Translations under genes and position numbers: made by a program
Shown: positions 1 through 19,631 of the stretch, piece by piece
Numbering within the stretch: position 1 is the first letter of the stretch
Layout: every line of letters begins with the position of its first letter
Virus record (IMG/VR): IMGVR_UViG_3300000213_000007
Location: 1 to 23,745 of that record
DNA length: 23,745 nucleotides
Strand: one strand, 5' to 3'
From: a virus
Notes under the pieces: model-generated
Told to the model about the DNA's origin: nothing
The model's input: the letters and a program-made list of their open reading frames with translations, nothing else
The model's database searches: none

Positions 1-921
1 TTAATTAGTGTGCTTACGAGAGACTTAGCAAAACGGTTAAATGTTATTAACATTAGCCAGCTAATACAAAAACATACTAAAGAACTATTTAACGAGTACG
101 CGAAGACTATTGAATACAACGGAATTGATGATCAAGCTAAAAAAGTTGAGTTAAGTATTCTAGAAGATGCGGTGGTTATAGAGAATGAATTAATTTCTAA
201 CAAAATCAAAGCTGTTAAGTTGTTAACAACAGATGGTAGCTTAATTATTAAAAAAGACTTAGTGGTTCTAGGGGATGTCAATACAGATGCTACAGGTTGG
301 GATAAGTTAGCTAGTAGAATACAGCAAGATGTGTTTAGACAATTTACTACTCAAATAAAAAAACAGTTAACAGAAGATGTAATAAATTTAGCAAAGACAA
401 CCAGCATAGACTTTAAGAAAGTAACAGTTAATGGCAAATCTATTGTAGTGGGTAATGCACTATCTAATACAATAACAGAATCAATGTTACACAAAGTTGG
501 GGCGTTAAAAGAGTTAACTGTAACCGGCCAAGCTAACATAAACGATTGTTTGCATGTTGTAAATAAACGAATAGGCATCAATACTGAAACTCCAAGTATG
601 GCATTGACAATATGGGATGAAGAAGCTGAAATAGTAGCAGGAAAAATAAAGAAACAAACAGCATTTATTGGAACAGGGAGAAAACAAGAGTTGCAGATAG
701 GAATTAACCGTTCCGGTAATATTACTATCAAGGATGATGGATTAGTACAAATTGAACGTTTACAAGTTGGACTTAATAGAATTAGTCACGCTAGTGAGCT
801 ACCTGGGTACTTAGGTTCTAAGGGTGACATTGTGTTTAACAATAATGTAAGTAAGAGTAATCTTACGTTCGCATGGATGTGTCTTGGAAATTATAATTGG
901 TTGAGTCTTAAATCATCATGA
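1..921 (+). CDS. Tail-fibre-like virion structural protein, C-terminal part (5' partial)
   Basis: The reading frame is open to the window edge, so the gene very probably starts upstream; the GTG at position 10 is only the first possible start inside the window. The C-terminal third has the run RIGINTETPSMALTIWDEE, a pattern I know from tail-fibre or structural proteins of marine T4-like phages, followed by beta-rich Gly/Asn segments and a closing YNWLSLKSS. The middle part is rich in short beta-strand-like valine and isoleucine stretches. Its stop overlaps the next start (ATGA), so the two genes are probably co-translated. Role inferred: host-recognition or baseplate-distal fibre. No catalytic motif is visible. 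Confidence 0.6.
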   Translation, partial: LISVLTRDLAKRLNVINISQLIQKHTKELFNEYAKTIEYNGIDDQAKKVELSILEDAVVIENELISNKIKAVKLLTTDGSLIIKKDLVVLGDVNTDATGWDKLASRIQQDVFRQFTTQIKKQLTEDVINLAKTTSIDFKKVTVNGKSIVVGNALSNTITESMLHKVGALKELTVTGQANINDCLHVVNKRIGINTETPSMALTIWDEEAEIVAGKIKKQTAFIGTGRKQELQIGINRSGNITIKDDGLVQIERLQVGLNRISHASELPGYLGSKGDIVFNNNVSKSNLTFAWMCLGNYNWLSLKSS

Positions 922-1472
922 AAATATGTTGGGTTCTGAGTGAGCAAACCAAACCTGATGTAGTTGATATCGAGACTTTAAAAGATGTTGCACCTACATG
1001 GGGTAGTTGTAATACTCACAGGCATTACAACGTTGATAACATTGTATGTTGTGGTTATAACAAGGCTAGTGAGCTTATCACACGCAATGCCCATCACACC
1101 GGCAACCTATATGTACCTGCCCAGCATTTTATAACACTAGGCCAGCCAGCGGATGTTAACATATATGAAGGTGAATTTAAGAGCAATGATATTAATCACA
1201 AAGATGATATCATTGCTCTTAACTTAGTAATTCAGAATTATGATATCGTTCTGTTGCTTGGATTTAGTTTAGCGAAGCCTAAGTCTAAAAATGAGCTGGA
1301 TATACATAAACAAAATGCGTATCTTCATAACATTAAAACAATAATTAATGATAATAAAGATACACAGTTTGTTATTATAAACTACAGAGGCAAATTAAGT
1401 AAGGAATTTAGTGATTTAGAAAATCTAAGTAGAGATTCGTTAATAAACACAGTAGGACTTCTTACTTCTTAA
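918..1472 (+). CDS. Conserved phage protein of unknown function beside the tail-fibre gene
   Basis: 184 residues, beginning MKICWVLSEQTKPDVVDIE. The ATG lies in the ATGA overlap with the tail-fibre-like gene. Alternating strands and helices, with hydrophobic strands such as YDIVLLLGF and TQFVIINYRG, suggest a small alpha/beta fold. There is a Cys/His-bearing stretch near residues 31-52 (SCNTHRHYNVDNIVCCGYN). I recall similar proteins next to fibre genes of marine T4-like phages but know no function. Its 3' end overlaps the convergent minus-strand gene by 11 bases. Confidence 0.7.
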   Translation: MKICWVLSEQTKPDVVDIETLKDVAPTWGSCNTHRHYNVDNIVCCGYNKASELITRNAHHTGNLYVPAQHFITLGQPADVNIYEGEFKSNDINHKDDIIALNLVIQNYDIVLLLGFSLAKPKSKNELDIHKQNAYLHNIKTIINDNKDTQFVIINYRGKLSKEFSDLENLSRDSLINTVGLLTS

Positions 1473-9446: not shown

Positions 9447-9537
9447 GGGGAGAATGAGCAATGGCGAGCTCAAGTGGCTGTAACCCACCCGCATTGTCAA
9501 TAAGTCTGTAATGGTTCGACTCCATTTCTCCTCACCA
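9447..9537 (+). tRNA. tRNA-Tyr(GTA)
   Basis: Acceptor GGGGAGA/TCTCCTC, D stem GAGC/GCTC, anticodon loop CTGTAAC (GTA), long variable arm as expected for bacterial tRNA-Tyr, canonical T-loop TTCGACT, A73 and encoded CCA. Confidence 0.92.
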
Positions 9538-9543
9538 AATATA

Positions 9544-9635
9544 GGGCAATTAAAGGGAATTAGGTATACCTATTTGGTATACCTATTTGTTTTAGAAATA
9601 AGTGTTTCTCGGAACGAGACCGAAGTTGCCCACCA
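9544..9635 (+). tRNA. tRNA-Lys(TTT)-like, rearranged D-arm region, perhaps pseudogene
   Basis: Acceptor GGGCAAT/GTTGCCC with A73 and CCA, anticodon stem TATTT/AAATA and loop GTTTTAG (TTT). The segment between acceptor and anticodon arm is about twice the normal length because GGTATACCTATTT is perfectly duplicated in tandem (9563-9575, 9576-9588). The T-loop is AACGAGA, with A54 and A55 instead of TT. Either a decayed gene or a deliberately altered tRNA; a normal tRNA-Lys(TTT) exists at 10577. Confidence 0.6.
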
Positions 9636-9643
9636 ATTATAAA

Positions 9644-9721
9644 GCTCTGGTATCCCAATCTGGTAGAGGAAGTGGAATTAAAATCCATACAGTGTGGATT
9701 CGAATCCCACCCGGAGCACCA
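9644..9721 (+). tRNA. tRNA-Leu(TAA) with a short variable loop
   Basis: Acceptor GCTCTGG/CCGGAGC, D-loop with CTGGTAGA, anticodon stem GTGGA/TCCAT and loop ATTAAAA (TAA), T-loop TTCGAAT, A73 and CCA. Only about 5 bases lie between the anticodon and T stems, whereas leucine tRNAs normally have a long variable arm. Confidence 0.85.
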
Positions 9722-9775
9722 AATACTCTGTTTGCTAGTGCAGAAAGTAATTCTAAAAACTAGCACTAATTTAAT

Positions 9776-9867
9776 GGAAGATGATATGATTTGATGGAAA
9801 TTGTCCTAGTCTTGAAAACTAGTGGATCCTGTGAAGGGTTGGGGATCGTGCCCTCCGTCTTCCGCCA
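9776..9867 (+). tRNA. tRNA-Ser(TGA), A54/T58 T-loop
   Basis: Acceptor GGAAGAT/GTCTTCC, anticodon stem CTAGT/ACTAG with loop CTTGAAA (TGA), long variable arm, G73 and CCA as expected for serine. The T-loop reads ATCGTGC, with A54 and T58. The 54 bases upstream contain a 7-bp hairpin TGCTAGT/ACTAGCA. Confidence 0.9.
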
Positions 9868-9872
9868 TTTAC

Positions 9873-9948
9873 GCAACCTTGGCATATGTGGTCTGTGCGA
9901 AAGTTTGAAGAACTTTAGATTCTTGTTCGATTCAAGAAGGTTGCACCA
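9873..9948 (+). tRNA. tRNA-Phe(GAA)
   Basis: Acceptor GCAACCT/AGGTTGC, D stem GCAT/GTGC, anticodon stem AAAGT/ACTTT with loop TTGAAGA (GAA), T-loop TTCGATT, A73, CCA. Confidence 0.94.
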
Positions 9949-9955
9949 AGTTAAG

Positions 9956-10024
9956 GGGGATGCCGTATGGGACGGACTTTTGATTTGCAATCAAGATGGC
10001 TGGGATCGTTACCCAGTATCTCCA
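9956..10024 (+). tRNA. tRNA-Ala(TGC), A54/T58 T-loop
   Basis: Acceptor GGGGATG/TATCTCC with a G3-T70 wobble, the main alanine identity element. Anticodon stem TTTGA/TCAAG with loop TTTGCAA (TGC). T stem CTGGG/CCCAG is perfect, T-loop ATCGTTA. A73; CCA not encoded. The D arm is short. Confidence 0.85.
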
Positions 10025-10034
10025 CAAAAAAGGT

Positions 10035-10123
10035 TTGCTATGTACTGTATTGCCTATTAAGGTAATACAAACTGGATAAGGATCGTATTCCGAAATGTAC
10101 TCGCCACAGGTACTACATAGCAA
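10035..10123 (+). ncRNA. Structured RNA element, copy 1 of a pair (paralogue at 13001)
   Basis: Closed by a perfect 10-bp helix TTGCTATGTA/TACATAGCAA. Inside are a hairpin TATTGCC-tattaa-GGTAATA, then AAACTGG, GGATCGTATTC and CGCCACAG. The core TTAAGGTAAT, AAACTGG, GGATCRTATTC, CGCCACAG is shared with 13001-13099, while the helices differ and covary. ATCGTAT resembles the altered T-loops of nearby tRNAs, so a tRNA origin is possible, but no normal cloverleaf fits. Confidence 0.65.
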
Positions 10124-10131
10124 TTTATTCT

Positions 10132-10205
10132 GGTTCCTTAGTTCAATAGGAGAACACCTTCCTTACAAGTAGAAGACGGTGGAGCGTTACCATCAGGAAT
10201 CACCA
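10132..10205 (+). tRNA. tRNA-Val(TAC), A54/T58 T-loop
   Basis: Acceptor GGTTCCT/AGGAATC, D stem GTTC/GAAC, loop CTTACAA (TAC) with mismatches in the anticodon stem, T stem GGTGG/CCATC, T-loop AGCGTTA (A54, G55, T58), A73, CCA. A second TAC tRNA with a canonical T-loop is at 11455. Confidence 0.85.
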
Positions 10206-10332
10206 AGATTGCTTCTACACTATAGAGGCACTGAATGCCAGTGAAATGGCCCAAAGGAGGAGACCGCTTAGATAGTAGCGTGGACATCTATTCTAGACAA
10301 TAGACCGAGTCGTAAAACTATCATTTAATTAT
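10206..10332 (+). other. Spacer with hairpins and a mini cloverleaf-like fold
   Basis: Contains CACTG-aatgc-CAGTG near 10229-10243, and at 10271-10322 a 6-bp closing helix GATAGT/ACTATC around TCTATT-ctagac-AATAGA. At 52 bases it is too short for a tRNA. No coding frame. Perhaps a decayed tRNA. Confidence 0.4.
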
Positions 10333-10405
10333 GCAATCGTAGCTTAATCGGGAAAGCGCCGGCTTGTCACGCCAGAGAGAGTGGGATCGTAGCCCATCGA
10401 TTGCG
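10333..10405 (+). tRNA. tRNA-Asp(GTC), A54/T58 T-loop
   Basis: Acceptor GCAATCG/CGATTGC, D stem GCTT/AAGC, loop TTGTCAC (GTC), T stem GTGGG/CCCAT, T-loop ATCGTAG, G73 as expected for Asp. CCA not encoded. Confidence 0.9.
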
Positions 10406-10418
10406 AACTATATTTAAT

Positions 10419-10495
10419 GGCGGGCATAGTGTAAAGGTTTGCACCTAACTCTGTGAAAGTTAAAGTATGAGAGCGACAACTCATTGCTCGCCCCA
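10419..10495 (+). tRNA. tRNA-His(GTG), 8-base T-loop
   Basis: Includes the extra G-1 opposite C73, the histidine identity pair. Acceptor GCGGGCA/TGCTCGC, D stem GTGT/GCAC, anticodon stem TAACT/AGTTA with loop CTGTGAA (GTG). T stem ATGAG/CTCAT closes an 8-base loop AGCGACAA. CCA encoded. Confidence 0.9.
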
Positions 10496-10500
10496 AATAT

Positions 10501-10570
10501 TTCCCGCGGTCTGGGACCAGCAGAGTCTCCAAAATTCAGTAGCGCGGTTCAATTCCGTGGCGGGAAGCCA
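10501..10570 (+). tRNA. tRNA-Trp(CCA), short D arm
   Basis: Acceptor TTCCCGC/GCGGGAA, loop CTCCAAA (CCA), T stem CGCGG/CCGTG, canonical T-loop TTCAATT, G73 as expected for Trp, CCA. At 70 bases it is short, because D and anticodon stems compete for the same bases. Confidence 0.85.
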
Positions 10571-10576
10571 AATATT

Positions 10577-10661
10577 GGGTCTGTCATCTAATGGTATGAT
10601 ACCGGACTTTTAATCCGGCGCAATAATTGCAATGAGAGTTCGATTCTCTCCGGACCCACCA
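10577..10661 (+). tRNA. tRNA-Lys(TTT) with an unusually long variable arm
   Basis: Acceptor GGGTCTG/CGGACCC, D stem ATC/GAT, anticodon stem CCGGA/TCCGG with loop CTTTTAA (TTT), T stem GAGAG/CTCTC, canonical T-loop, A73, CCA. About 15 bases, including a GCAAT-aa-TTGC hairpin, lie between the anticodon and T stems, a class II feature not expected for lysine. Confidence 0.88.
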
Positions 10662-10668
10662 TTTTAAT

Positions 10669-10744
10669 TTCCAGTGACCGAGCAAGTGAACGGGCCTGCC
10701 TGTTAAGCAGAGACCGCGGGGAGCGTTACCCTGACTGGGAGCCA
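10669..10744 (+). tRNA. tRNA-Asn(GTT), A54/T58 T-loop
   Basis: Acceptor TTCCAGT/ACTGGGA, D stem CCG/CGG, loop CTGTTAA (GTT), T stem CGGGG/CCCTG, T-loop AGCGTTA, G73 and CCA. Confidence 0.9.
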
Positions 10745-10748
10745 ATAT

Positions 10749-10824
10749 AGGACTATAACTCAGTTGGTAGAGTACTTGCCCGATAAGCAAGAAGTCGTGG
10801 GATCGTAGCCCACTAGTCCTACCA
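10749..10824 (+). tRNA. tRNA-Ile(GAT), A54/T58 T-loop and C33
   Basis: Acceptor AGGACTA/TAGTCCT, D stem ACTC/GAGT, anticodon stem CTTGC/GCAAG with loop CCGATAA: position 33 is C instead of the near-universal T. T stem GTGGG/CCCAC, T-loop ATCGTAG, A73, CCA. Confidence 0.9.
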
Positions 10825-10828
10825 AATA

Positions 10829-10903
10829 GGGACTGTAGCTTAAAGGTAAAGCATCCGACTCATAATCGGTAGAGTCTAAGTTCAATTCCTAGCAGTCCCA
10901 CCA
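10829..10903 (+). tRNA. tRNA with CAT anticodon (elongator Met or Ile2)
   Basis: Acceptor GGGACTG/CAGTCCC, D stem GCTT/AAGC, stem TCCGA/TCGGT with loop CTCATAA, T-loop TTCAATT, A73, CCA. CAT could read AUG or, if lysidinylated, AUA; the sequence does not decide. Confidence 0.9.
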
Positions 10904-10906
10904 TAT

Positions 10907-10992
10907 GCAATCGTGGACAAACTGGTATAGTCACTAGCCTTTCAAGCTAGAGCCGTAAGGCATTGCGGGTTCAAGCCCCGTCGGTTGCCCCA
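10907..10992 (+). tRNA. tRNA with TTC anticodon (Glu) on a class II body
   Basis: Acceptor GCAATCG/CGGTTGC, D stem GAC/GTC, anticodon stem CTAGC/GCTAG with loop CTTTCAA (TTC), an extra arm GCC-gtaa-GGC, T stem GCGGG/CCCGT, T-loop TTCAAGC, C73, CCA. The long arm and D-loop recall leucine or serine tRNAs, and C73 is atypical for Glu, so the charging identity is uncertain. Confidence 0.85.
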
Positions 10993-10998
10993 AATATA

Positions 10999-11073
10999 GC
11001 CCGGTAAGCATTAATAGTGATGCAACAGATTTGTAACCTGTAGAAGGGGGAGCATTACCTCCACTGGGCACCA
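10999..11073 (+). tRNA. tRNA-Thr(TGT), A54/T58 T-loop
   Basis: Acceptor GCCCGGT/ACTGGGC, D stem GCAT/ATGC, stem ACAG/CTGT with loop TTTGTAA (TGT), T stem GGGGG/CCTCC, T-loop AGCATTA, A73, CCA. Confidence 0.9.
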
Positions 11074-11203
11074 AACGAACTGATTGTCGTAATCAGATAG
11101 TAGTGGACAACTATGAAGAGAAGTGGAATAACTACCCACATTGTCACCCTACAGAGGATCTGTCGGCATGGCTGGTGTCGTAGCATATGCTCCAGCCACT
11201 CAT
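11074..11203 (+). other. Spacer with a series of hairpins
   Basis: CTGATT-gtcgt-AATCAG (11080-11096), ATAGT/ACTAT, GTGG/CCAC and TGGCTGG/CCAGCCA (11169-11175 with 11192-11198). No cloverleaf and no coding frame that I can support. Confidence 0.45.
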
Positions 11204-11280
11204 TGACCCTTAGACAAATTGGTAAAGTCAACGGTTTTTGATGCCGTTATTTCGAGGTTCGAGCCCTCGAGGGTCATCCA
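11204..11280 (+). tRNA. tRNA-Gln(TTG)
   Basis: Acceptor TGACCCT/AGGGTCA, D stem GAC/GTC, stem ACGGT/GCCGT with loop TTTTGAT (TTG), T stem CGAGG/CCTCG, canonical T-loop TTCGAGC, T73 (unusual), CCA. Confidence 0.9.
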
Positions 11281-11288
11281 AGTTAAAT

Positions 11289-11358
11289 GCGGGTAAGCTG
11301 ATGGACAGTCGCTGGCCTTCCAAGCCATGCAGTTAGGTTTCGAACACCTATATCCGCT
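11289..11358 (+). tRNA. tRNA-Gly(TCC)
   Basis: Acceptor GCGGGTA/TATCCGC, short D arm, stem CTGGC/GCCAT with loop CTTCCAA (TCC), T stem TAGGT/ACCTA with canonical T-loop. CCA not encoded. The following 96 bases hold small hairpins (GCATG-taatatt-CATGC; CTAATG/CATTAG). Confidence 0.88.
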
Positions 11359-11454
11359 CATTCTCATCAAAGCATGTAATATTCATGCAGGTCCACTAGA
11401 ACCTATTCTAATGCCTAGTAGAACATTAGTTCCGTCATTTTATAATGATGTCAT

Positions 11455-11527
11455 AGTCCATTAACTCAGATAGTAGAGTGTCTGATTTACATTCATAATG
11501 TCGGCAGTTCAATCCTGTCATGGACTA
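11455..11527 (+). tRNA. tRNA-Val(TAC), second copy, canonical T-loop
   Basis: Acceptor AGTCCAT/ATGGACT, D stem ACTC/GAGT, stem TCTGA/TCATA with loop TTTACAT (TAC), T stem GGCAG/CTGTC, T-loop TTCAATC, A73. CCA not encoded. Confidence 0.85.
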
Positions 11528-11547
11528 CACAATTTTTAAAGTTTTAT

Positions 11548-11621
11548 CTGCACGTAGCTCAGTCTGGTAGAGTATTCGGTTTGGAACTGAAAAGTCGCTG
11601 GTTCGAACCCAGCCGTGCAGA
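11548..11621 (+). tRNA. tRNA-Pro(TGG)
   Basis: Acceptor CTGCACG/CGTGCAG with C1-G72 as in bacterial tRNA-Pro, D stem GCTC/GAGT, stem TTCGG/CTGAA with loop TTTGGAA (TGG), T stem GCTGG/CCAGC with canonical T-loop, A73. CCA not encoded. Confidence 0.92.
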
Positions 11622-11692
11622 TACCAACAGTGTCAGGAATAGCAAGTGGAATATTTGCTATTTGTGCAATGATGTTTTATAGTTAGAAAAAC

Positions 11693-11763
11693 AGCGAGTT
11701 AGTCAAGGACTAAGTTGGGCTCATAATCCTTCCAGCCCGGAGCGTTACCGGGGCTCGCTACCA
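11693..11763 (+). tRNA. tRNA-Met(CAT), initiator-like anticodon stem, A54/T58 T-loop
   Basis: Acceptor AGCGAGT/GCTCGCT, loop CTCATAA preceded by GGG as in initiator tRNAs, weak A1-T72 end pair, T stem CCCGG/CCGGG, T-loop AGCGTTA, A73, CCA. It may serve as initiator or be a second elongator. A hairpin AATAGCAA/TTGCTATT lies just upstream. Confidence 0.85.
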
Positions 11764-11768
11764 TTTTT

Positions 11769-11842
11769 GTTCTACTCGGCTAATGGTTAGGCCACCGGGT
11801 TGCTAATCCCGGAAATCTTGGTTCGAATCCAAGTATAGAACA
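11769..11842 (+). tRNA. tRNA with GCT anticodon in an 8-base loop, no long arm
   Basis: D stem GGCT/GGCC, anticodon stem CCGGG/CCCGG closing the 8-base loop TTGCTAAT, short variable region, T stem CTTGG/CCAAG with canonical loop TTCGAAT. Acceptor GTTCTA/TAGAAC has one unpaired base. Serine tRNAs should have a long variable arm, and a proper Ser(GCT) exists at 14435, so identity and decoding are uncertain. Confidence 0.75.
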
Positions 11843-12256
11843 CTAAACAACTTTCATGGGTCTTATTGATCATTTGACTATTGAAAGGAATAGAGATAAT
11901 GGGACACCGTGGTGGATCTATTTATCTTGAATTGTTAAGGGAATGAGGTACCATCATCCTAGATTATGATTGTATACTTTTTGGTGTATGTTGCACGCTC
12001 GGTCAATTAGGCGGAGAGGATAGGTTCGATTCCTATTCCTATATGTATATAATGTTATGAAAACTTAACAAAAACCTGAGTCACAGGTTAAAGGAATGAT
12101 TGTGTCATTCCACTTATTTAAGTAGCAAGTAAGCATATTACTTGGTACTAAGATGTATCGTATTAAATTTTTTTAGTACCTATAGAATATTTCTACTAGT
12201 AATTTATTTTTTTTTGTGTATAATAGCTTTACTTAAACAACTTTAGGAGAAATAAT
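11843..12256 (+). other. Non-coding stretch with one tRNA-like fold and a hairpin array
   Basis: About 410 bases without a gene. 11969-12053 has a 9-bp closing helix ATTGTATAC/GTATATAAT and an intact canonical T-arm ATAGG-TTCGATT-CCTAT, but no ordinary anticodon arm. 12073-12144 holds three consecutive perfect hairpins, all with 5-base loops. TATAAT at 12219-12224 probably drives the gene at 12257. Confidence 0.5.
12073..12144 (+). other. Three back-to-back hairpins with 5-base loops
   Basis: AACCTG-agtca-CAGGTT (12073-12089), GGAATGA-ttgtg-TCATTCC (12093-12111), CAAGTAA-gcata-TTACTTG (12126-12144). No T-runs follow the individual hairpins. Role unknown; possible transcript-end or processing signals for the first tRNA block. 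Confidence 0.65.
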
Positions 12257-12430
12257 ATGTCAGAAGACACTGGCGAAGATATAAAATTAAAAAATTCATA
12301 TGCTGGATATGATCTGTATGCTTATGAAATTGATGGCGGGGTGTCGATTAGTGTTTTTGAATTTGAGTGTGTTTTAACTAAAGCAGACACTGTGAAATTG
12401 AGAGACTTTTTGCATAGATGTGTTGATTAA
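12257..12430 (+). CDS. 57-residue protein inside the tRNA array, unknown function
   Basis: Good ribosome site AGGAGA 6 bases before the ATG and a TATAAT about 33 bases upstream. Product MSEDTGEDIKLKNSYAGYDL, then YAYEIDGGVSISVFEFECVL and a short helix ending DFLHRCVD: an acidic start, beta-rich middle and C-terminal helix. No family recognised. Confidence 0.65.
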   Translation: MSEDTGEDIKLKNSYAGYDLYAYEIDGGVSISVFEFECVLTKADTVKLRDFLHRCVD

Positions 12431-12593
12431 TGATATTCCCTTCTTAGTTACAGAAGTAAAATTGTACCAATCCTATGGAATAGGTGCTTAGTGAGGATAA
12501 TGACACTACGTTTCAGGTGCGTTAAACCCTGTGAGCAGAGTATACTGCTATATTATTAAATAAACCCTCACGCTACCTCATTTAGTTGGAATC

Positions 12594-12690
12594 GAGTGGT
12601 GGGAATTCATATAATGTGAATTGAAAGTAGCACTGCTATACGACAGATAGTTCGAATCTATCCGGGGGAATAGGCACGCAAATAAGTCCA
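12594..12690 (+). repeat. tRNA-like element A (related copy at 21763-21850)
   Basis: GAGTGGT, then AATTCA-tataatg-TGAATT, TAGC-act-GCTA and GATAG-TTCGAAT-CTATC, ending GGCACGC. It reads like a class II tRNA in order (D-loop, anticodon arm, extra arm, T-arm), but the presumed anticodon loop lacks T33 and I find no acceptor helix. Confidence 0.55.
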
Positions 12691-12743
12691 TATGCCTCGA
12701 GGTCATAACGGGTCAATGCGACAATGACACGTATAGCGTTTGA

Positions 12744-12800
12744 CTCCCTGAGTGTGTGGTCACAAATGCATATTGGCAGTTCAATTCTGTACCAGGGAGG
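12744..12800 (+). other. 57-base mini tRNA-like fold without anticodon arm
   Basis: Acceptor-like CTCCCTG/CAGGGAG, arm TGTG-tggt-CACA, then GGCAG-TTCAATT-CTGTA as a T-arm. There is no room for an anticodon arm. Most likely a tRNA gene that lost it. Confidence 0.45.
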
Positions 12801-12823
12801 CGCATTTGTAAGTTGTTATTTAT

Positions 12824-12969
12824 AAGTAGTGTTTGAGTTGTTCAGTTTCTTTCATTTAGTTGAGTCGAACAACATTAAAACGACTCTCGACTTCCTTGGT
12901 TATTCTTGGAATAGATACGTCTGCTCTTCACTCTATATCCTAGGCAATATTAGGGGACAGACACTACTT
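12824..12969 (+). ncRNA. Candidate structured RNA with an H-type pseudoknot
   Basis: A perfect 9-bp helix AAGTAGTGT/ACACTACTT closes 146 bases. Inside, stem 1 GTTGTT (12837-12842)/AACAAC (12868-12873) and stem 2 GAGTCG (12862-12867)/CGACTC (12881-12886) interleave in the order 1-2-1'-2', the definition of an H-type pseudoknot, with loops of 19 and 7 bases. A hairpin TATTC-ttg-GAATA and helix GTCTG/CAGAC follow. I do not recognise the family. Confidence 0.6.
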
Positions 12970-13000
12970 TTAAATAATAATTTAAGCAACACAAGATAAT

Positions 13001-13099
13001 GTTATATACTACATACGCCTAGATATATGAATCTTAAGGTAATGTAAACTGGCACTGGGATCATATTCTCAGATGAAGCCGCCACAGCTCTTATATAAC
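13001..13099 (+). ncRNA. Structured RNA element, copy 2 of a pair (paralogue at 10035)
   Basis: Closed by GTTATATA/TATATAAC. Shares TTAAGGTAAT, AAACTGG, GGATCATATTC and CGCCACAG with copy 1. The second helix is TACAT/ATGTA here against GTATT/AATAC there, a compensatory change. CTGGGA/TCTCAG forms an internal hairpin with a T-loop-like ATCATAT. Confidence 0.65.
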
Positions 13100-13199
13100 G
13101 CCTACAAGTAATACAGTTTTCGCAGGATACTTCTGTAAAAAGTATCTTCCAAACAACTATTAGTAATTTTTATGTATATTAATTCAGAGGAGGAGAAGA

Positions 13200-13688
13200 A
13201 CGAGTAAGGTCTACCTAGCCGCAGATTTACATTTCGGACATAAAAATGTTCATAAATTCAGAACTCAATTCTCCTCCGAACAAGAGCACCGTAAGTATGT
13301 TATTGAACGATGGAACAATATTGTTACTAAGCGTGACAAAGTATTTGTTCTCGGCGATGCTTGTTTTACAATAGAAGCATTAGCAGACATTGATAAGTTA
13401 AATGGAATTAAACATTTAATCCGTGGAAATCATGATAACCTTAATACAAGTGCTTATCTAACAGTGTTTAAGGAAGTAGAAGGTATGTTGAGATATAAAC
13501 ATGCTTGGCTTACGCATTCTCCAATACATACGGATGAACTAAGAGGAAAGATTAACATTCATGGTCATACACATTTTCATTGCATCGATGATACTAGATA
13601 CGAGAATGTATGCATGGAGAATATTGATTATACGCCAGTTGAATGGTTCCAATTAATAGAAAAGAGAAAGAAGAGATTAGGATTGTAA
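13200..13688 (+). CDS. Calcineurin-like metallophosphoesterase with an ACG start
   Basis: 162 residues when begun at ACG 13200: (M)SKVYLAADLHFGH, then VFVLGDACF, LIRGNHDN, THSPIH and INIHGHTHFH. These are the full ordered motifs of the calcineurin-like phosphoesterase fold (D-x-H, GDxx, GNHD, H, GHTH), of the short phage type. The strong ribosome site GAGGAGGAG ends 4 bases before the ACG. No ATG, GTG or TTG lies in a position that keeps the first metal motif; the first in-frame ATG (13464) would remove half the active site. Substrate unknown (nucleotide or RNA-end phosphoesters are plausible). It lies between structured RNAs and the second tRNA block, so a role in RNA-end healing is an attractive inference. 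Confidence 0.8.
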   Translation, partial: TSKVYLAADLHFGHKNVHKFRTQFSSEQEHRKYVIERWNNIVTKRDKVFVLGDACFTIEALADIDKLNGIKHLIRGNHDNLNTSAYLTVFKEVEGMLRYKHAWLTHSPIHTDELRGKINIHGHTHFHCIDDTRYENVCMENIDYTPVEWFQLIEKRKKRLGL

Positions 13689-13835
13689 AAATAGTATGTT
13701 TAATACATATTAATAGGGCAGGAATTGTCCGAATAGAAGCCTGCGAAGATACACTATTAGGGATTCAATTAAATCTGAATTTAGATATGTATCTATGGAG
13801 CAGGAAGCTGATGCGTTAGCATACCAGTAATTCAT

Positions 13836-13911
13836 CCCTGTGTAGCTCAGTGTCTAGAGCAGACTGTATTACGGTACAGTTATGTCAGTGGTTCGATTCC
13901 ACTCGCAGGGG
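13836..13911 (+). tRNA. tRNA with an 8-base anticodon loop, identity uncertain
   Basis: Acceptor CCCTGTG/CGCAGGG, D stem GCTC/GAGC, T stem AGTGG/CCACT with canonical loop TTCGATT, G73, no encoded CCA. The anticodon stem ACTGT/ACAGT closes the 8-base loop ATTACGGT, so the anticodon could be TAC or ACG depending on register, or the tRNA could read four bases. Confidence 0.75.
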
Positions 13912-13920
13912 CCTTATTAT

Positions 13921-13996
13921 GCCCTTATGGTGCAACAGAATAGCATACGAGATTACGAATCTCATGATCTGGGTTTGAGTCCTGGTGAGGGTTCCA
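13921..13996 (+). tRNA. tRNA-Arg(ACG)
   Basis: Acceptor GCCCTTA/TGAGGGT, D stem GTGC/GCAT, stem CGAGA/TCTCA with loop TTACGAA (ACG, A34 expected to become inosine), T stem CTGGG/CCTGG, T-loop TTTGAGT with T instead of C56, T73, CCA. Confidence 0.85.
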
Positions 13997-14002
13997 GTTT
14001 TT

Positions 14003-14079
14003 CTCCCTATAGCTCAGTGGAATAGAGCATCGGGTTTCTACCCCGTGTGCCGTAGGTTCGAATCCTTCTAGGGAGGCCA
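14003..14079 (+). tRNA. tRNA-Arg(TCT)
   Basis: Acceptor CTCCCTA/TAGGGAG, D stem GCTC/GAGC, stem TCGGG/CCCGT with loop TTTCTAC (TCT), T stem GTAGG/CCTTC, canonical T-loop TTCGAAT, G73, CCA. Confidence 0.93.
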
Positions 14080-14085
14080 AAATAT

Positions 14086-14160
14086 GCTCAGGTGTCAGAA
14101 TCAGAAATGTCGCGGATTGCAAACCCGCTTATGTGGAGGCAGTATCCACCCTGAGCTCCA
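14086..14160 (+). tRNA. tRNA-Cys(GCA) with unusual T-loop
   Basis: Acceptor GCTCAGG/CCTGAGC, stem GCGGA/CCCGC with loop TTGCAAA (GCA), T73 as expected for Cys, CCA. T stem GTGGA/TCCAC is perfect but the loop is GGCAGTA (G54, G55, G58), again not TTCRA. Confidence 0.88.
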
Positions 14161-14175
14161 ATTTAGGAATATAGT

Positions 14176-14433
14176 ATGAAAGATTTAATAGGACAAGAAG
14201 TCGATATAGGTGATGTAGTAGTATTCAGTAAACGTAACGAATTGTATTATGGTACTGTTCTGCGTTTTACACCAAAACGAATACAAGTAACGAATGTTAA
14301 GTTTCATACATGTAAGTATTGTGAGAAGGGAAGACCTCGCAAGAATTGTTTTAGAAAAGGTGATATAGCAATGGCGAAAGATGTAGTTAAAGTGGATGCT
14401 AGGTATGTTACCATGAAGTTGTTATTAGAATAA
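14176..14433 (+). CDS. Small phage protein with Cys cluster, between tRNA genes
   Basis: 85 residues: MKDLIGQEVDIGDVVVFSKR, then YYGTVLRFTPKRIQVTNVKF and a cysteine stretch TCKYCEKGRPRKNCF. The first half looks like a small beta-barrel (SH3-like) of a family I recall from T4-like phages; the cysteines may bind zinc. The ribosome site is weak (AGGAAT). Its TAA ends one base before tRNA-Ser(GCT), so mRNA and tRNA must be cut apart after transcription. Confidence 0.7.
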   Translation: MKDLIGQEVDIGDVVVFSKRNELYYGTVLRFTPKRIQVTNVKFHTCKYCEKGRPRKNCFRKGDIAMAKDVVKVDARYVTMKLLLE

Positions 14434-14434
14434 T

Positions 14435-14520
14435 GGAAGATTGCCAGAGAGGTAATGAAGCGGTTTGCTAAATCGTAGGACCGCAAGGTTCCGTAGGTTC
14501 GATTCCTACATCTTCCGCCA
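14435..14520 (+). tRNA. tRNA-Ser(GCT)
   Basis: Acceptor GGAAGAT/ATCTTCC, stem GCGGT/ATCGT with loop TTGCTAA (GCT), long variable arm, T stem GTAGG/CCTAC with canonical T-loop TTCGATT, G73, CCA. A normal class II serine tRNA. Confidence 0.93.
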
Positions 14521-14769: not shown

Positions 14770-14777
14770 TATAAATA
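14770..14777 (+). promoter_or_regulatory. T4-type late promoter box TATAAATA
   Basis: Exact TATAAATA. The ATG of the aminotransferase-like gene begins only 7 bases after the box and has no ribosome site, so the transcript could be leaderless. Confidence 0.6.
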
Positions 14778-14783
14778 TTATAG

Positions 14784-15653
14784 ATGAATATAAGTTCGGA
14801 ACCATTGCAGAATAATGTAATTAGAAAGTCAATCAATGGTATATTAAATACAACTACAATGGATATCATAGAAAAAGTGACGTTCGAGGAGTACGAATCT
14901 CACTGGAGAAAATGGTTAACATACGATACTAAGAATATTGTAAATTTAGACAAGTTTCCATATGCTAGTTATACAGGTGGGTCTACACCTTCATTTGGTG
15001 AATTTATTGTTAGACATAACAATAGACGTGTAAGAGGCAGTAGAAACGATTTTATCTTAACTAGTATTCTATGTAGAACGTATGCCAAGGAATTAGTTTA
15101 CTTAGAAGATGCCCCAATTAAAAAGAACGACTGTGTTATTATAAGTTTGCCATTTAGTGGGAATGGAATTAAATACAAAAACATGAATTACTTATTAGAG
15201 CAATGTAATCTACTAGGTGTTCCTGTAATGTTGGATGCTTCGTATTTTGGGATTAGTTATGGTATTACATATCCATTGCATTATAAATGCATAACCGACA
15301 TTGTGTTTAGTCATTCTAAGAATTTTAGTTTAACAGATGCTCGTGTTGGTATACGATTTACTAAAGAATTAATAGATGATACGTTAAGTGCTCCGCAAAT
15401 TATGGGAGATATTTTCAATAAAATAGGAGCGCATATCGCTATAGAACTAATGACCCAATTTTCACATAACTGGTTTATTAATAGGTACTTAGAAGAGTAT
15501 CTATCATTGTGTAAACAGTTTGGTCTACAGCATACAAACACAATAACTTTGGCGTTAGGAGAAAAAGATAATCCTAAACATGCTCGATTTAAAAGAAATG
15601 ATTATATTAGAATATGCATCAGCGAAGAATTAAGCGGCAGTATTATGTCATAA
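14784..15653 (+). CDS. PLP-dependent aminotransferase-like protein (fold type I, compact)
   Basis: 289 residues. VPVMLDASYFG supplies the Asp151 and Tyr154 expected to contact the pyridoxal ring, and FSHSKNFSLTDARVGIRF supplies Ser176, the Schiff-base Lys179 and the phosphate-binding Arg187, the classic S-x-S-K-x(7)-R-x-G pattern of fold type I enzymes. YTGGSTPSFGEF may be the N-terminal substrate loop, and the C-terminal YIRICIS resembles the last strand of the small domain. At under 300 residues it is much shorter than typical aminotransferases (about 390-430). A late promoter lies directly upstream and the ATG has no ribosome site. It heads an accessory enzyme group with two iron oxygenases; amino donor and product are unknown. 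Confidence 0.65.
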   Translation: MNISSEPLQNNVIRKSINGILNTTTMDIIEKVTFEEYESHWRKWLTYDTKNIVNLDKFPYASYTGGSTPSFGEFIVRHNNRRVRGSRNDFILTSILCRTYAKELVYLEDAPIKKNDCVIISLPFSGNGIKYKNMNYLLEQCNLLGVPVMLDASYFGISYGITYPLHYKCITDIVFSHSKNFSLTDARVGIRFTKELIDDTLSAPQIMGDIFNKIGAHIAIELMTQFSHNWFINRYLEEYLSLCKQFGLQHTNTITLALGEKDNPKHARFKRNDYIRICISEELSGSIMS

Positions 15654-15669
15654 TATCGAAGTTTGCTAG

Positions 15670-15685
15670 GCCGACAAAAGTTGGC
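15670..15685 (+). other. Short hairpin after the aminotransferase-like gene
   Basis: GCCGAC-aaaa-GTTGGC, 6 bp with one wobble. No T-run, so a terminator role is doubtful. A weak late-promoter-like AAATAAATA follows at about 15700. Confidence 0.4.
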
Positions 15686-15735
15686 GTGTGTTATATTACA
15701 AATAAATATCTTTAACAATTACAAGGAGAATTAAA

Positions 15736-16893
15736 ATGAAAGTTAGCCCTATACCGGGATTTGGTAGTTTTGGTGTTTATATAGATGATATAGACATGGA
15801 TTATATGACAGATGAACAGTGGATGGAGATAGGAAAAATTTTCATAGATGAGATGGTTGTTGTATTTCGTAATATAAAAATGACAAAAGATCAATACGTA
15901 GAGTGGGTTTATAAATGGGGGCCTTCTAAATCTGATACTCATACAAAATTTGTTAATAAGTATGGAAAAAATCTTGACGCTAAAGATCCTAATTCTTGGA
16001 AAAACTTAGAAGAAGAAGATCGAATTTGGTTAGAAGGAAGAAAATATTTTTTAGAAGAAACAGAATCTAAAGAAAAATATGTCACTAGAATCTATGGGGG
16101 CAAAGATGAAGAAGGTCATGCTTTAGGTTATTTTAGCGGCGGTTATCTTGGTTGGCATAGCAACGAAGGTTCATCTCTTACACATACTCCTGCTGTGGCA
16201 TTTTATGGCTGGGATCATATGGAAGGTAGTGCTACGGGTTTTGTTCAAACTGTTGATTTGTATGAAAGTTTTAGTGAGAGTTTCCGTAGTGAATTAGATG
16301 AAATGGTTCTTACACACAAGTACGTAAAAGGCGTAGCTAATGAAAATGAGTTTACAGATGATACATTGGCATTGCATATAAAAAATGTATTTTGTCCTAC
16401 TGATGGAGCAGAAACACCACTAGTATGTACAGCACCTAATGGCAGACGTGGTTTACATTATCCTGCGAATACACGACACGGTATTAAAGGTATGCCACAA
16501 GAACAAGCAGGGAAAGTATTTGCTGAAATAGAAAGACAAATGTTTAACGGCAAGTATGTATATGATCATTATTATAGTAGTGCCGGCAGGGATCTTTGTG
16601 TATTTGATAATTCCGTTACGTTGCATCATAGGATTGGCAACCATCCAGAAAGAAAAGGATTTAGAGCACAATTTGATGTATCACCTATCATGGATAAGCC
16701 ATGGCTACCATGGGAACATTTTCCTGAGTATCACAGAAAATATATCGATGAAATACACAACATGGTGAACACTGTCGGCGGCCCATTAAAAGAACATTTT
16801 AAATTGCCTTCCAAACTATACAACATGAATATAGATGTTAAAGCGTTAAAAAATGATATAAACGAAGTATTTAAAAAATACGGTGACGTTTAG
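15736..16893 (+). CDS. TauD/clavaminate-synthase-like 2OG-Fe(II) dioxygenase
   Basis: 385 residues with strong ribosome site ACAAGGAG. The proximal motif LGWHSNEGSS (His141) and distal FDNSVTLHHR (His297 or His298), followed by the 2OG-binding GFRAQF (Arg310), are in the right order and spacing for TauD-type oxygenases, as are VVVFRN near the N-terminus and PAVAFYGWD after the first motif. The usual carboxylate ligand (H-x-D/E) is replaced by Asn143, with Glu144 next to it. It would oxidise a small molecule or amino-acid-like substrate using 2-oxoglutarate and O2; substrate unknown. Its TAG overlaps the GTG start of the next gene. Confidence 0.78.
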   Translation: MKVSPIPGFGSFGVYIDDIDMDYMTDEQWMEIGKIFIDEMVVVFRNIKMTKDQYVEWVYKWGPSKSDTHTKFVNKYGKNLDAKDPNSWKNLEEEDRIWLEGRKYFLEETESKEKYVTRIYGGKDEEGHALGYFSGGYLGWHSNEGSSLTHTPAVAFYGWDHMEGSATGFVQTVDLYESFSESFRSELDEMVLTHKYVKGVANENEFTDDTLALHIKNVFCPTDGAETPLVCTAPNGRRGLHYPANTRHGIKGMPQEQAGKVFAEIERQMFNGKYVYDHYYSSAGRDLCVFDNSVTLHHRIGNHPERKGFRAQFDVSPIMDKPWLPWEHFPEYHRKYIDEIHNMVNTVGGPLKEHFKLPSKLYNMNIDVKALKNDINEVFKKYGDV

Positions 16894-17588
16894 TGGCTCG
16901 TGAGGTTTACTTCGCGTCGATTCCTCCTAGCGGATCAGCAGAATTTTTTATTGAGCTGTTTGTGGGAAGAAACACTAGGAAAAATTTTCTCGGGCCATGT
17001 AAGGTAGAAATATTAGAGATCGGCAATAGTAGAACTCATGGCTCATTGTGCCATGCTTCTTATGTACAAGAAATAATGGATTACTTCGGTTGCGGTTTTA
17101 GGAATGTAGATTGGAAAAACAATCTCGAGTATTTTTCGTCTGTTTTAAAAAAGTACCCACATAAAGATATCTGGTTTGCTACTTTTCTTCCAGAAACTGT
17201 TGACATTATCAAGAAAAACTTTAGTCCCGAAGTTATAACACTAGCAATTAATTATAGCCCAGAGGATTTTAACATGGTGTGTCAACAGTGGGCCAAATGG
17301 CAAGGGGCTCGGATTTTCTACAATAACAAGTTTATTAAGCTAAGAAAAAAATTCAATGCAGTTAGTGATGCTATAGAATATTGTTATAAAACAGGTCCAG
17401 AACAATTTGGGTTCAGCATCCCAAGGTCGTTACAGGTTGATGCTGATATCATGATTAATCTCGTGGATATTTTTGACGAGCATAAGCTTAAAAAGATATT
17501 AGATACTCTCGGGTTTGAATGCACAGAACAAGACTGGAATTTTTACAGAGAGTATATTAAAATACCCGATTATCTAATGTTAGGATAA
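16893..17588 (+). CDS. Possible sulfotransferase-like protein (GTG start)
   Basis: 231 residues from a GTG that overlaps the upstream TAG, so translation is likely coupled. The N-terminus FASIPPSGSAEFFIEL resembles the PAPS 5'-phosphate loop (P-x-SG-[ST]) of sulfotransferases, THGSLCHASY lies where a substrate segment is expected, and IWFATFLPETVDII then VITLAINYSPEDFN resembles the second phosphate-binding region. The C-terminal helix block KKILDTLGFECTEQDWNFYR also fits. The conserved Arg/Lys of the first loop is Pro, so the assignment is tentative. Confidence 0.4.
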   Translation: MAREVYFASIPPSGSAEFFIELFVGRNTRKNFLGPCKVEILEIGNSRTHGSLCHASYVQEIMDYFGCGFRNVDWKNNLEYFSSVLKKYPHKDIWFATFLPETVDIIKKNFSPEVITLAINYSPEDFNMVCQQWAKWQGARIFYNNKFIKLRKKFNAVSDAIEYCYKTGPEQFGFSIPRSLQVDADIMINLVDIFDEHKLKKILDTLGFECTEQDWNFYREYIKIPDYLMLG

Positions 17589-17648
17589 CAGCCTTTAACT
17601 CTGTTTATGTTAGTCCGAGTCTAAAATAAAGTAACATTCTTTGTGTAT

Positions 17649-17656
17649 TATAAATA
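17649..17656 (+). promoter_or_regulatory. T4-type late promoter box TATAAATA
   Basis: Exact TATAAATA about 20 bases before the ATG at 17677, with the ribosome site AAGAGGAGC in between. Confidence 0.65.
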
Positions 17657-17676
17657 AAATAAGAGGAGCTAGTTTT

Positions 17677-18468
17677 ATGAATTATGAACAATCTGAATGG
17701 CATGCATTCACCCCTGGACAAGTAGATACAATAAAAAAGAATGATAGTATTGTATGTGTTAAAGAAAATTTTTTATCTCAAGATGAATTTGAAACGTTAC
17801 AAAAGATCTTATTAGAACACAAAGATTGGCCTGAACGTGGAGAATTGTCTGACATGTATGGGCTTCACTGGGACGAAGTGCCTAATGAGACATTAACTAT
17901 AAAACAACAAATCAGAGATATACTCGAAGATAAGATGCGTGGTGTAATTGGGGATTTTAAGTTAGATTTTATGATACTTCAGCATTCTAACCAGCCTTGG
18001 TATACTCATGTGGATTGGCGTTGGTCGGAAGATAAAATTCCATACATGACTGCTGTTATTCCAATTGCAGAAATTGATAAAAATGGTCAACTAATTGATC
18101 CAACTGATTGGAAAGACACACACACAATAGTTTTTAAACAATCTAATTATGGTGCAGAAGAAGATGCAAAGCAAATGGGGATAGAAGGATCAAAAGGAAA
18201 TCTTTTACGTGTTCGTAAATGTTATACAGATCCAGGGGCAGTAAATTTTACTGGATCGTACAGCATAACATACGACGATTACGAGAAATATCTTAGCCAT
18301 CTTAAATATGAAGAAATATTTGGGTTAGAGATTGATACTGTTGTAAAATGGAAACCTAGGATGATGTCTTTTCATCCTCAAGCTAGATATCATTGTGCAT
18401 CAAATTTTCATGCTGAAGGATTATCAAAAAAATATAGTATAGTTCTCTTTACTTTACATGATACTTAA
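17677..18468 (+). CDS. 2OG-Fe(II) oxygenase-like protein
   Basis: 263 residues from ATG 17677, chosen for its ribosome site AGAGGAGC. WYTHVDWRW gives the H-x-D pair (His111, Asp113). The C-terminal block FHPQARYHCASNFHAEGLSK with KYSIVLF gives a distal His (His245, or His239) and a basic residue (Lys252) where 2-oxoglutarate would bind. YMTAVIPIAEIDKNGQLI fits the strand pair after the first motif. It resembles cupin-fold oxygenases often carried by marine T4-like phages. Preceded by a late promoter box. Target unknown; a protein or small-molecule hydroxylation is inferred. Confidence 0.65.
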   Translation: MNYEQSEWHAFTPGQVDTIKKNDSIVCVKENFLSQDEFETLQKILLEHKDWPERGELSDMYGLHWDEVPNETLTIKQQIRDILEDKMRGVIGDFKLDFMILQHSNQPWYTHVDWRWSEDKIPYMTAVIPIAEIDKNGQLIDPTDWKDTHTIVFKQSNYGAEEDAKQMGIEGSKGNLLRVRKCYTDPGAVNFTGSYSITYDDYEKYLSHLKYEEIFGLEIDTVVKWKPRMMSFHPQARYHCASNFHAEGLSKKYSIVLFTLHDT

Positions 18469-18549
18469 CCATTTATTTTTTGCTTTTATCGAAAATTAGT
18501 ACTATGAGTGTAGTAATTCATAAAACGAAATAAAAAGGTATTTTTAAAT

Positions 18550-19587
18550 ATGAAAAATATATACATATTGCATCATCTTTGTATGCCCGATTTAGAAAGT
18601 CTACGCGACTTTTGTGATGTGAAAACTATTGATTTATGGGACGATTCCTTAAAAGACCATGTAATTCCAGATATACATGATAGTATTTTTGTTATATCGT
18701 ATTATGAGTATTTAAACAACCGAGAAAGTTACGATAGAGTATTTTCTGTCCTACAAAAAACAAATGCAATTGTTTTTACCCAAGACGTTGATGCTATTGT
18801 CATCGAACAAAGAGAACAGATATCATTATTACATCCATATACATATATACTGGATGGTGTCCCGTTGTTCGAACATGGAGGAAATGTGTACATTAAATTA
18901 AGTCAATTTGTGGGCAAGTGGGAGTATGTTAATTTGCATTTACAGATTGCCAATGCTGATGTTACGGTTAAACGTGCTGATTCTTATTTCTCGTTAAATG
19001 GACACAGCAGAGATCATAGGATAGAAATGATAAACCAGCTACACAATAGGGATCTGCTGAATAAAGGCCGTGTAATACTTCATCAAGGTATCGAAAAGCT
19101 TAAAAAAGGTGTAGCAGAACAATTAGGCACACAGGACAAAAATGACACCTACACCTGTACCGGAACAATAAATTGGGAGGAGGGGGTTATTAACCCAGTG
19201 TATTATTCTAAATACAATTTAGAAGTAGTAACAGAAACCATGACTGAAGCGTATTTTGTAACAGAGAAAACGATAAAACCAATAATGGCAAAAATGCCGT
19301 TTATGATGGTTGCTAGTAAAGGATATCTAGAGTATCTTAAAAGTCTAGGGTTTAAAACATTTAATAGCGTATTTGATGAATCATATGATTTAGAAGATAG
19401 CGTATCATTGCGTATCTCTAAAATAGTCGATACTCTTGAGATGTTAATAGAGTCCAACCAGATATACACACTGTACGATGACTGCAAAGAGATTACCAAT
19501 TACAATTTTGATCATATGTTATGGTTGTCAGCACGACGTAATTATGATTTACCTAAGCAGATGTACGATATCTTCGATAGTTTATAA
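18550..19587 (+). CDS. GT-B-type glycosyltransferase-like protein
   Basis: 345 residues. YFSLNGHSRDHRIEMINQL (about 146-164) matches the 'LNGRxRxHR' type motif, and YNLEVVTET ... FVTEKTIKPI then PFMMVASKGYLEYLKSLGF (about 222-268) matches the conserved C-terminal nucleotide-sugar site ('-TEKT-KP---G-PF-----) of exostosin or fucosyltransferase-like phage and giant-virus proteins. A sugar transfer to DNA, protein or a virion glycan is inferred. The ribosome site (AAAAAGG) is rather far from the ATG. The gene is closed by a strong terminator. Confidence 0.6.
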   Translation: MKNIYILHHLCMPDLESLRDFCDVKTIDLWDDSLKDHVIPDIHDSIFVISYYEYLNNRESYDRVFSVLQKTNAIVFTQDVDAIVIEQREQISLLHPYTYILDGVPLFEHGGNVYIKLSQFVGKWEYVNLHLQIANADVTVKRADSYFSLNGHSRDHRIEMINQLHNRDLLNKGRVILHQGIEKLKKGVAEQLGTQDKNDTYTCTGTINWEEGVINPVYYSKYNLEVVTETMTEAYFVTEKTIKPIMAKMPFMMVASKGYLEYLKSLGFKTFNSVFDESYDLEDSVSLRISKIVDTLEMLIESNQIYTLYDDCKEITNYNFDHMLWLSARRNYDLPKQMYDIFDSL

Positions 19588-19597
19588 ATTAAAGCAT

Positions 19598-19631
19598 CTC
19601 CTAGTTTCTACTAGGGGGTATTTTTTTTTTG
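19598..19631 (+). terminator. Rho-independent terminator
   Basis: CTCCTAGT-ttct-ACTAGGGG followed by a run of ten or more T. Ends the accessory-enzyme transcript. Confidence 0.88.

What the first reader, a model, noticed from the sequence alone, without database searches (positions are those of the whole stretch)
14784..19587. Accessory enzyme module: PLP enzyme, two iron oxygenases, sulfotransferase-like and glycosyltransferase-like proteins
Five consecutive rightward genes carry motifs for amino transfer, 2OG-dependent oxidation (twice), possible sulfation and glycosyl transfer, ended by one terminator and partly under late promoters. Late expression fits making or decorating a virion sugar or modified amino-sugar; a small-molecule pathway is also possible. 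I know of no described phage pathway with exactly this set.
Basis: partly seen in the sequence, partly recalled or inferred. Interest (0 to 1): 0.62.

Follow-up and report, generated by a model that had tools for sequence, protein, structure and literature searches.

The report
Phage enzyme cassette with odd oxygenase
Five neighbouring genes of an aquatic phage fragment form a mix-and-match enzyme cassette whose best-conserved part is an oxygenase-like protein that lacks the usual iron-binding acid in all 67 phage versions examined; what the cassette makes is unknown.

Summary
The five rightward ORFs and the terminator are real. "Late promoters" are not supported: TATAAATA occurs 5 times, 6.0 expected. 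Enzyme labels hold unevenly. 14784 has a fold-type-I PLP fold (Z about 20), its Lys, Asp and Arg invariant in 63 phage proteins. 15736 is TauD/TfdA, but the carboxylate iron ligand is Asn (WHSN) in 67 of 67 phage homologues, one of only 11 invariant positions; bacterial TauD paralogues checked have HXD. 17677 shares HxD...H with its nearest relative. 16893 is only weakly P-loop/sulfotransferase-like. 18550 is a conserved phage family that matches no glycosyltransferase. The exact gene set was found nowhere else, but its parts recur: 16893-type genes lie next to TauD in 16 of 17 loci, and PLP genes are often followed by an 18550-type gene. So this is a new arrangement of known enzyme-rich hypervariable phage islands. 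I favour modification of the virion or host surface, at modest confidence. The most novel part is the invariant His-Asn-His oxygenase.

The parts
14784..15653 (+). Compact fold-type-I PLP protein (289 aa), member of a phage family with 61 viral loci found here; Schiff-base Lys179 (codon 15318-15320), Asp151 and Arg191 kept
   Evidence: AlphaFold2 model pLDDT 71, pTM 0.74; Foldseek E 3e-10 to PLP enzymes; VIA-align Z 20.3, rmsd 4.0 over 272 residues; K, D, R, S176 and S178 invariant in 63 proteins
15736..16893 (+). TauD/TfdA-family protein (385 aa) with Asn in place of the Asp/Glu iron ligand (W-H-S-N-E)
   Evidence: Pfam TauD 3e-12; phrog_24590 1e-66; 203 related stretches in viral contigs
16156..16164 (+). 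Codons of His141-Ser142-Asn143: the HxN that replaces HxD/E (distal His297 at 16624-16626)
   Evidence: H141, N143 and H297 invariant in 67 distinct sequences; aligned to Asp in RdpA
16893..17588 (+). X3: 231-aa partner of the TauD-like protein, probable P-loop (kinase/sulfotransferase-like) fold
   Evidence: Model pLDDT 77, pTM 0.73; weak P-loop matches; relatives adjacent to TauD in 16 of 17 loci
17677..18468 (+). OG2: second 2OG/Fe-oxygenase-like protein (263 aa); HVD codons at 18007-18015
   Evidence: HxD and distal His shared with L170, distal His with L172; no family match
18550..19587 (+). 345-aa protein of a phage family whose members often follow the PLP gene; glycosyltransferase identity unconfirmed
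   Evidence: Profile match to family c53 8e-22; E229, E239, K240, F251 invariant in 21 members; no GT family match
19596..19629 (+). Intrinsic-terminator-like stem-loop and T run
   Evidence: 10 pairs, 4 GC, loop of 4, then ATTTTTTTTT
14770..14777 (+). TATAAATA box before 14784; not above chance
17649..17656 (+). TATAAATA box before 17677; not above chance

Best explanation
A cassette of accessory enzymes from the enzyme-rich variable islands of aquatic tailed phages. It is assembled from sub-units that move separately: the TauD-like/X3 pair, and a PLP protein with an 18550-type protein, plus an extra 2OG-type protein (OG2). Shown: protein families (PLP, TauD), conserved active-site residues, X3-TauD adjacency, recurrence in islands often close to fibre-like genes. 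Inferred: the PLP protein aminates or otherwise transforms a small precursor; the TauD-like protein, with Fe held by two His and an Asn or an open site, and OG2 oxidise the precursor or a bound group; X3 assists the TauD-like step by handling a nucleotide-linked donor or as a partner protein; the 18550 protein attaches the group. The target is most likely a fibre protein or the host envelope.
For: PLP fold and invariant Lys/Asp/Arg. TauD family with invariant H, N and H. X3 next to TauD in 16 of 17 loci, in both gene orders, at 20-26% identity to the window. PLP followed by an 18550-type gene in many PLP loci, with AspH-like, radical-SAM, amidinotransferase and SDR genes around. Fibre-like cluster in the flanks of 25 of 62 distinct TauD loci, directly before TauD in 9; a long fibre-like ORF directly before X3-TauD in L098. 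Pelagimyophages carry a host recognition cluster of tail fibres, glycosyltransferases and radical-SAM cassettes (PMC7029224).
Against: The five genes together were not seen in any other locus. The window's own fibre-like ORF is about 14 kb from the cassette. Fibre identity of the cluster rests on sequence look and weak PHROG hits. TauD is not significantly closer to radical-SAM genes than random placement on long contigs (0.15-0.80 per contig). No glycosyltransferase or sulfotransferase family match. Substrates unknown.
Confidence: 0.4

Rival explanations
1. Small-molecule pathway: the cassette makes a free amino or guanidino metabolite or cofactor that alters the host during infection.
For: Radical-SAM, B12 radical-SAM, AspH-like and StrB1-like amidinotransferase genes surround the relatives; the PLP model also resembles O2- and PLP-dependent arginine oxidases MppP, RohP and Plu4.
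Against: No transporter or carrier gene beside the cassette; the amidinotransferase is absent from the window; the fold match is shared by all class-I aminotransferases.
Confidence: 0.22
2. Independent cargo: five accessory genes that landed in one variable stretch, each with its own role, not one pathway; the TauD-X3 pair is the only functional unit.
For: The five-gene set is not found elsewhere; most TauD loci lack PLP and X3 (5 and 7 of 62); gaps of 81-88 nt leave room for separate promoters; PLP and TauD families each occur without the other in most loci.
Against: PLP, TauD and 18550-type genes do occur together in L061/L109 and L110; same strand and one terminator.
Confidence: 0.22
3. Nucleic-acid modification: 2OG oxygenases, a PLP enzyme and a transferase modify phage DNA or tRNA bases.
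For: From general knowledge, phage DNA hypermodification uses 2OG, PLP and glycosyltransferase steps; a tRNA array lies just upstream.
Against: No thymidylate-synthase-like, TET/JBP or base-kinase gene in the window by the scans made; TauD/TfdA members characterised so far act on small molecules.
Confidence: 0.1

Closest known systems
Host recognition cluster (hypervariable island) of T4-like pelagimyophages and cyanophages (PMC7029224)
   Same: Mix of tail-fibre genes with glycosyltransferases, radical-SAM cassettes and other enzymes, little synteny
   Different: That paper's text names no aminotransferase or sulfotransferase; the window is a fragment without confirmed T4-like core genes
Taurine catabolism dioxygenase of Prochlorococcus phages P-HM1, P-HM2, MED4-213 (T4-GC447; phrog_24590)
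   Same: Same family, about 35% identity, same WHSN site
   Different: There it sits beside gp59 and DUF1825 genes, without X3 or PLP neighbours in the regions read
TauD/TfdA dioxygenases such as RdpA/TfdA
   Same: Fold family, two His ligands and distal Arg
   Different: Asn instead of Asp at the third ligand, always
AspH and 2OG halogenases (no carboxylate ligand)
   Same: Iron bound without the Asp/Glu (PMC10947486)
   Different: Different families; here an Asn is fixed at the position
Class-I aminotransferase-fold PLP enzymes (MalY, HisC, CobD, MppP)
   Same: Fold and Lys/Asp/Arg core
   Different: Only 289 aa, 10-16% identity, phage family with its own conserved positions

Membership tests
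TauD/TfdA Fe/2OG oxygenase | Family sequence profile | tested here: met
   Pfam PF02668 3e-12, above its cut-off
TauD/TfdA Fe/2OG oxygenase | HXD/E...H iron triad | tested here: not met
   HXN in 67 of 67; so a family relative, but not shown to be a canonical dioxygenase
TauD/TfdA Fe/2OG oxygenase | Distal Arg for 2OG | tested here: met
   R306 and R310 each 66 of 67
TauD/TfdA Fe/2OG oxygenase | Fe and 2OG-dependent activity | not testable with these tools
   needs the bench
Fold-type-I PLP enzyme | Fold | tested here: met
Fold-type-I PLP enzyme | Schiff-base Lys, pyridine-N Asp, phosphate/carboxylate residues | tested here: met
   K179, D151, R191, S176, S178 invariant in 63; roles assigned by fold analogy
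PAPS sulfotransferase (X3) | P-loop sulfotransferase fold | tested here: inconclusive
   Sulfotransferases and kinases both near Z 7-8; Foldseek E 0.003 to 0.02
PAPS sulfotransferase (X3) | 5'-PSB loop (PxxGT type) and 3'-PB Arg/Ser | tested here: inconclusive
   P-[SY]-G-[ST] can be read in the nine aligned proteins (one-residue shift in the window); Tyr where Arg is expected; by eye, no structure-based superposition
PAPS sulfotransferase (X3) | Sequence profile match | tested here: not met
   No sulfotransferase match in Pfam or PDB sequences with 9 members
Fe/2OG oxygenase (OG2) | HxD...H | tested here: met
   In the window protein and L170; the HxD of L172 does not align cleanly, its distal His does
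Fe/2OG oxygenase (OG2) | Double-stranded beta-helix fold | not tested
Glycosyltransferase (18550) | Match to a GT family | tested here: not met
   None among 21 family members in Pfam or PDB sequences
Glycosyltransferase (18550) | GT-A or GT-B fold | not tested

The most novel reading that the evidence does not exclude
A phage-dominated branch of TauD enzymes with an obligatory His-Asn-His iron site performs a reaction other than ordinary hydroxylation (for example halide or pseudohalide transfer, or chemistry on a donor held by its P-loop partner X3) as part of building a virion or envelope modification.
Probability: 0.2. Interest if true: 0.8.

Novelty: new variant of a known kind. Interest (0 to 1): 0.5.

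Why it matters
The WHSN family (203 related stretches in viral contigs; Asn in all 67 distinct proteins checked) offers a natural set of 2OG-type proteins in which the carboxylate ligand is replaced by Asn, with a neighbouring partner gene in one branch. That makes it directly testable whether an Asn site supports catalysis and which outcome it favours. It also puts names on parts of the large, mostly unannotated enzyme islands of aquatic phages.

Tried and rejected
Single-protein scans of viral contigs found nothing for 15736, 14784, 17677 and 18550; alignments worked for TauD, X3 and PLP. Alignment A3 was too diverse to scan. tblastn in phage records: only TauD has matches, in Prochlorococcus phages. 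The nucleotide search found, in the 20 rows listed, only the tRNA-Ser. Late promoters rejected as unsupported. Clustering of radical-SAM genes around TauD was tested on nine long contigs and is not significant per contig, so I do not claim a specific TauD-radical-SAM link. OG2 is not related by profile to the AspH-like, c3 or other neighbour families tested. A degenerate-DNA scan for the OG2 motif THVDWRW gave three contigs without convincing relatives. BFVD gives one good structural relative of X3, an uncharacterised phage protein (E 8e-14). In the VIA list for X3 no single family stands out. No paper was found combining these terms; the paper library is partial, so this is weak evidence of absence.

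Full report
What is there. The window is a 23,745-base virus record that is probably only a fragment. The five ORFs stand as described: 14784-15653, 15736-16893, 16893-17588, 17677-18468 and 18550-19587, all on + and without internal stops. The TauD stop overlaps the GTG of 16893; the other gaps are 81-88 nt. A 10-pair stem with a T run follows (19596-19629). A metallophosphoesterase (phrog_1649) comes next. TATAAATA boxes are not enriched (5 seen, 5.98 expected), so late expression is an open question, not evidence.

PLP protein (14784). Library hits are weak (Aminotran_1_2 0.19; valine-pyruvate transaminase 0.004). An AlphaFold2 model from 8 relatives (pLDDT 71, pTM 0.74) is a clear fold-type-I PLP enzyme: Foldseek E 3e-10, VIA-align Z 20.3 with rmsd 4.0 over 272 residues against MalY. 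A family alignment search finds 61 viral loci. In 63 distinct proteins K179, D151, R191, S176, S178, P123, F124 and G66 are invariant. The window copy departs from the family at otherwise near-invariant places (Y75 to I, G88 to N, Y90 to F, H93 to T, W104 to L), so its substrate may differ.

TauD-like protein (15736). Pfam TauD 3e-12; phrog_24590 1e-66. The search patterns used to collect relatives (RSELDEM and a GFGVFVDD-like one) do not include the metal site. In 67 distinct phage sequences (window included) W140, H141, N143 and H297 are invariant, E144 is 65 of 67, R310 66 of 67; only 11 of 385 positions are invariant at all. Aligned to RdpA, N143 stands where the Asp of HTD stands. TauD paralogues in the bacterial assemblies that also hold a relative show WHSD, WHTD or WHQD, and one HNE-like site. 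The three genome-collection relatives are on a SAR116 MAG contig, a Methylocucumis contig and a long Prochlorococcus single-cell contig; whether these are phage DNA was not tested. Loss of the carboxylate does not by itself mean loss of activity: AspH uses two His, variants with one His stay active, and halogenases lack the carboxylate (PMC10947486).

X3 (16893). No Pfam model matches any of 9 members convincingly, nor does a profile match PDB sequences. The model (pLDDT 77) resembles APS kinase and sulfotransferases weakly (E 0.003 to 0.02) and guanylate kinases and heparan sulfate sulfotransferase at Z 8.3 and below, a level that may mean only a shared arrangement. A P-[SY]-G-[ST] loop near the N terminus resembles the 5'-phosphosulfate loop, but the Arg expected at the 3'-phosphate site is Tyr (by eye). 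The strong fact is genomic: a search with X3 alone found 17 loci, and 16 carry the TauD-like gene directly adjacent; the 17th is cut off by its contig end. X3 precedes TauD in most and follows it in the window and in L033/L036. Several of the 17 are near-identical, so the number of independent cases is smaller, roughly nine.

OG2 (17677) and the 18550 protein. OG2 has no family match. Searching 50 records gave one clear relative (L170, E 1e-14) in a record that also carries the PLP family, flanked by a radical-SAM gene and an AspH-like gene, and two weak ones (L171, L172). HxD and the distal His are kept in L170; the distal His in L172. The 18550 protein matches family c53 (8e-22), whose members often follow the PLP gene elsewhere. 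The conserved [TS]EKT segment recalls GT-B fucosyltransferases from memory, but no glycosyltransferase model or structure matches 21 members.

Context. Around 62 distinct TauD loci, radical-SAM clusters occur in 43 and a fibre-like cluster in 25. Around the PLP loci: StrB1-like amidinotransferase in 31 of 61 (PDB 1bwd, E 4e-98 for L123), SDR in 23, SPASM radical-SAM in 20, AspH-like in 18 (Pfam identities). On long contigs radical-SAM genes often form compact islands, but TauD is not significantly close to them. The exact five-gene order was not seen elsewhere. This matches the known pattern of hypervariable islands with tail fibres, glycosyltransferases and radical-SAM cassettes in pelagimyophages and cyanophages (PMC7029224). 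The cyanophage paper lists T4-GC447 as a taurine catabolism dioxygenase without discussing its metal site in the passages read (PMC3037559).

Interpretation. Shown: families for PLP and TauD, active-site conservation, the TauD-X3 pairing, the recurring PLP/18550-type pairing, island setting. Inferred: that these act on one product, that the product is a modified group on a fibre or the envelope, and that X3 handles a nucleotide-linked donor. I give 0.4 to that reading, 0.22 to a free small molecule, 0.22 to independent cargo genes, 0.1 to nucleic-acid modification. Novelty is that of a variant: known islands, new arrangement, and one unusual enzyme family whose Asn site is directly testable.

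Noticed in passing
window 9447-14520: Dense tRNA array (16 by ARAGORN, 16 by Rfam, the sets differ), two with predicted four-base anticodons; the stretch between about 11843 and 13836 has no predicted tRNA and almost no long ORF.
   Followed up: partly
window 1-1472: Fibre-like C-terminal ORF (1-921, by sequence look) overlapped by a 184-aa ORF (918-1472); neither has a PHROG match.
   Followed up: no
L107, L108, L110, L113, L116, L121, L123, L138 (6 kb around the PLP gene): Recurrent phage gene run: AspH-like, PLP, 18550-type, AspH-like, StrB1-like amidinotransferase, with SDR and UDP-glucose dehydrogenase genes close by in several.
   Followed up: partly
L017 14817-17075, L147, L152-L161: Two PLP-family genes in tandem with a small gene between, in several records next to a B12-type radical-SAM gene.
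   Followed up: no
L005 7645-8655: PnrA/Bmp-type ABC substrate-binding protein directly after the TauD gene closest to the window's (Pfam 2e-47).
   Followed up: no
family c3 (125 members in TauD and PLP loci), e.g. L013 1846-2379: Very common 160-200 aa phage family without a Pfam match for the tested member; profile comparison relates it to AspH-like oxygenases (probability 93.5).
   Followed up: partly
window 14784-15653: The window's PLP protein deviates at several positions that are near-invariant in its family while keeping the catalytic core: divergent substrate or relaxed constraint.
   Followed up: no
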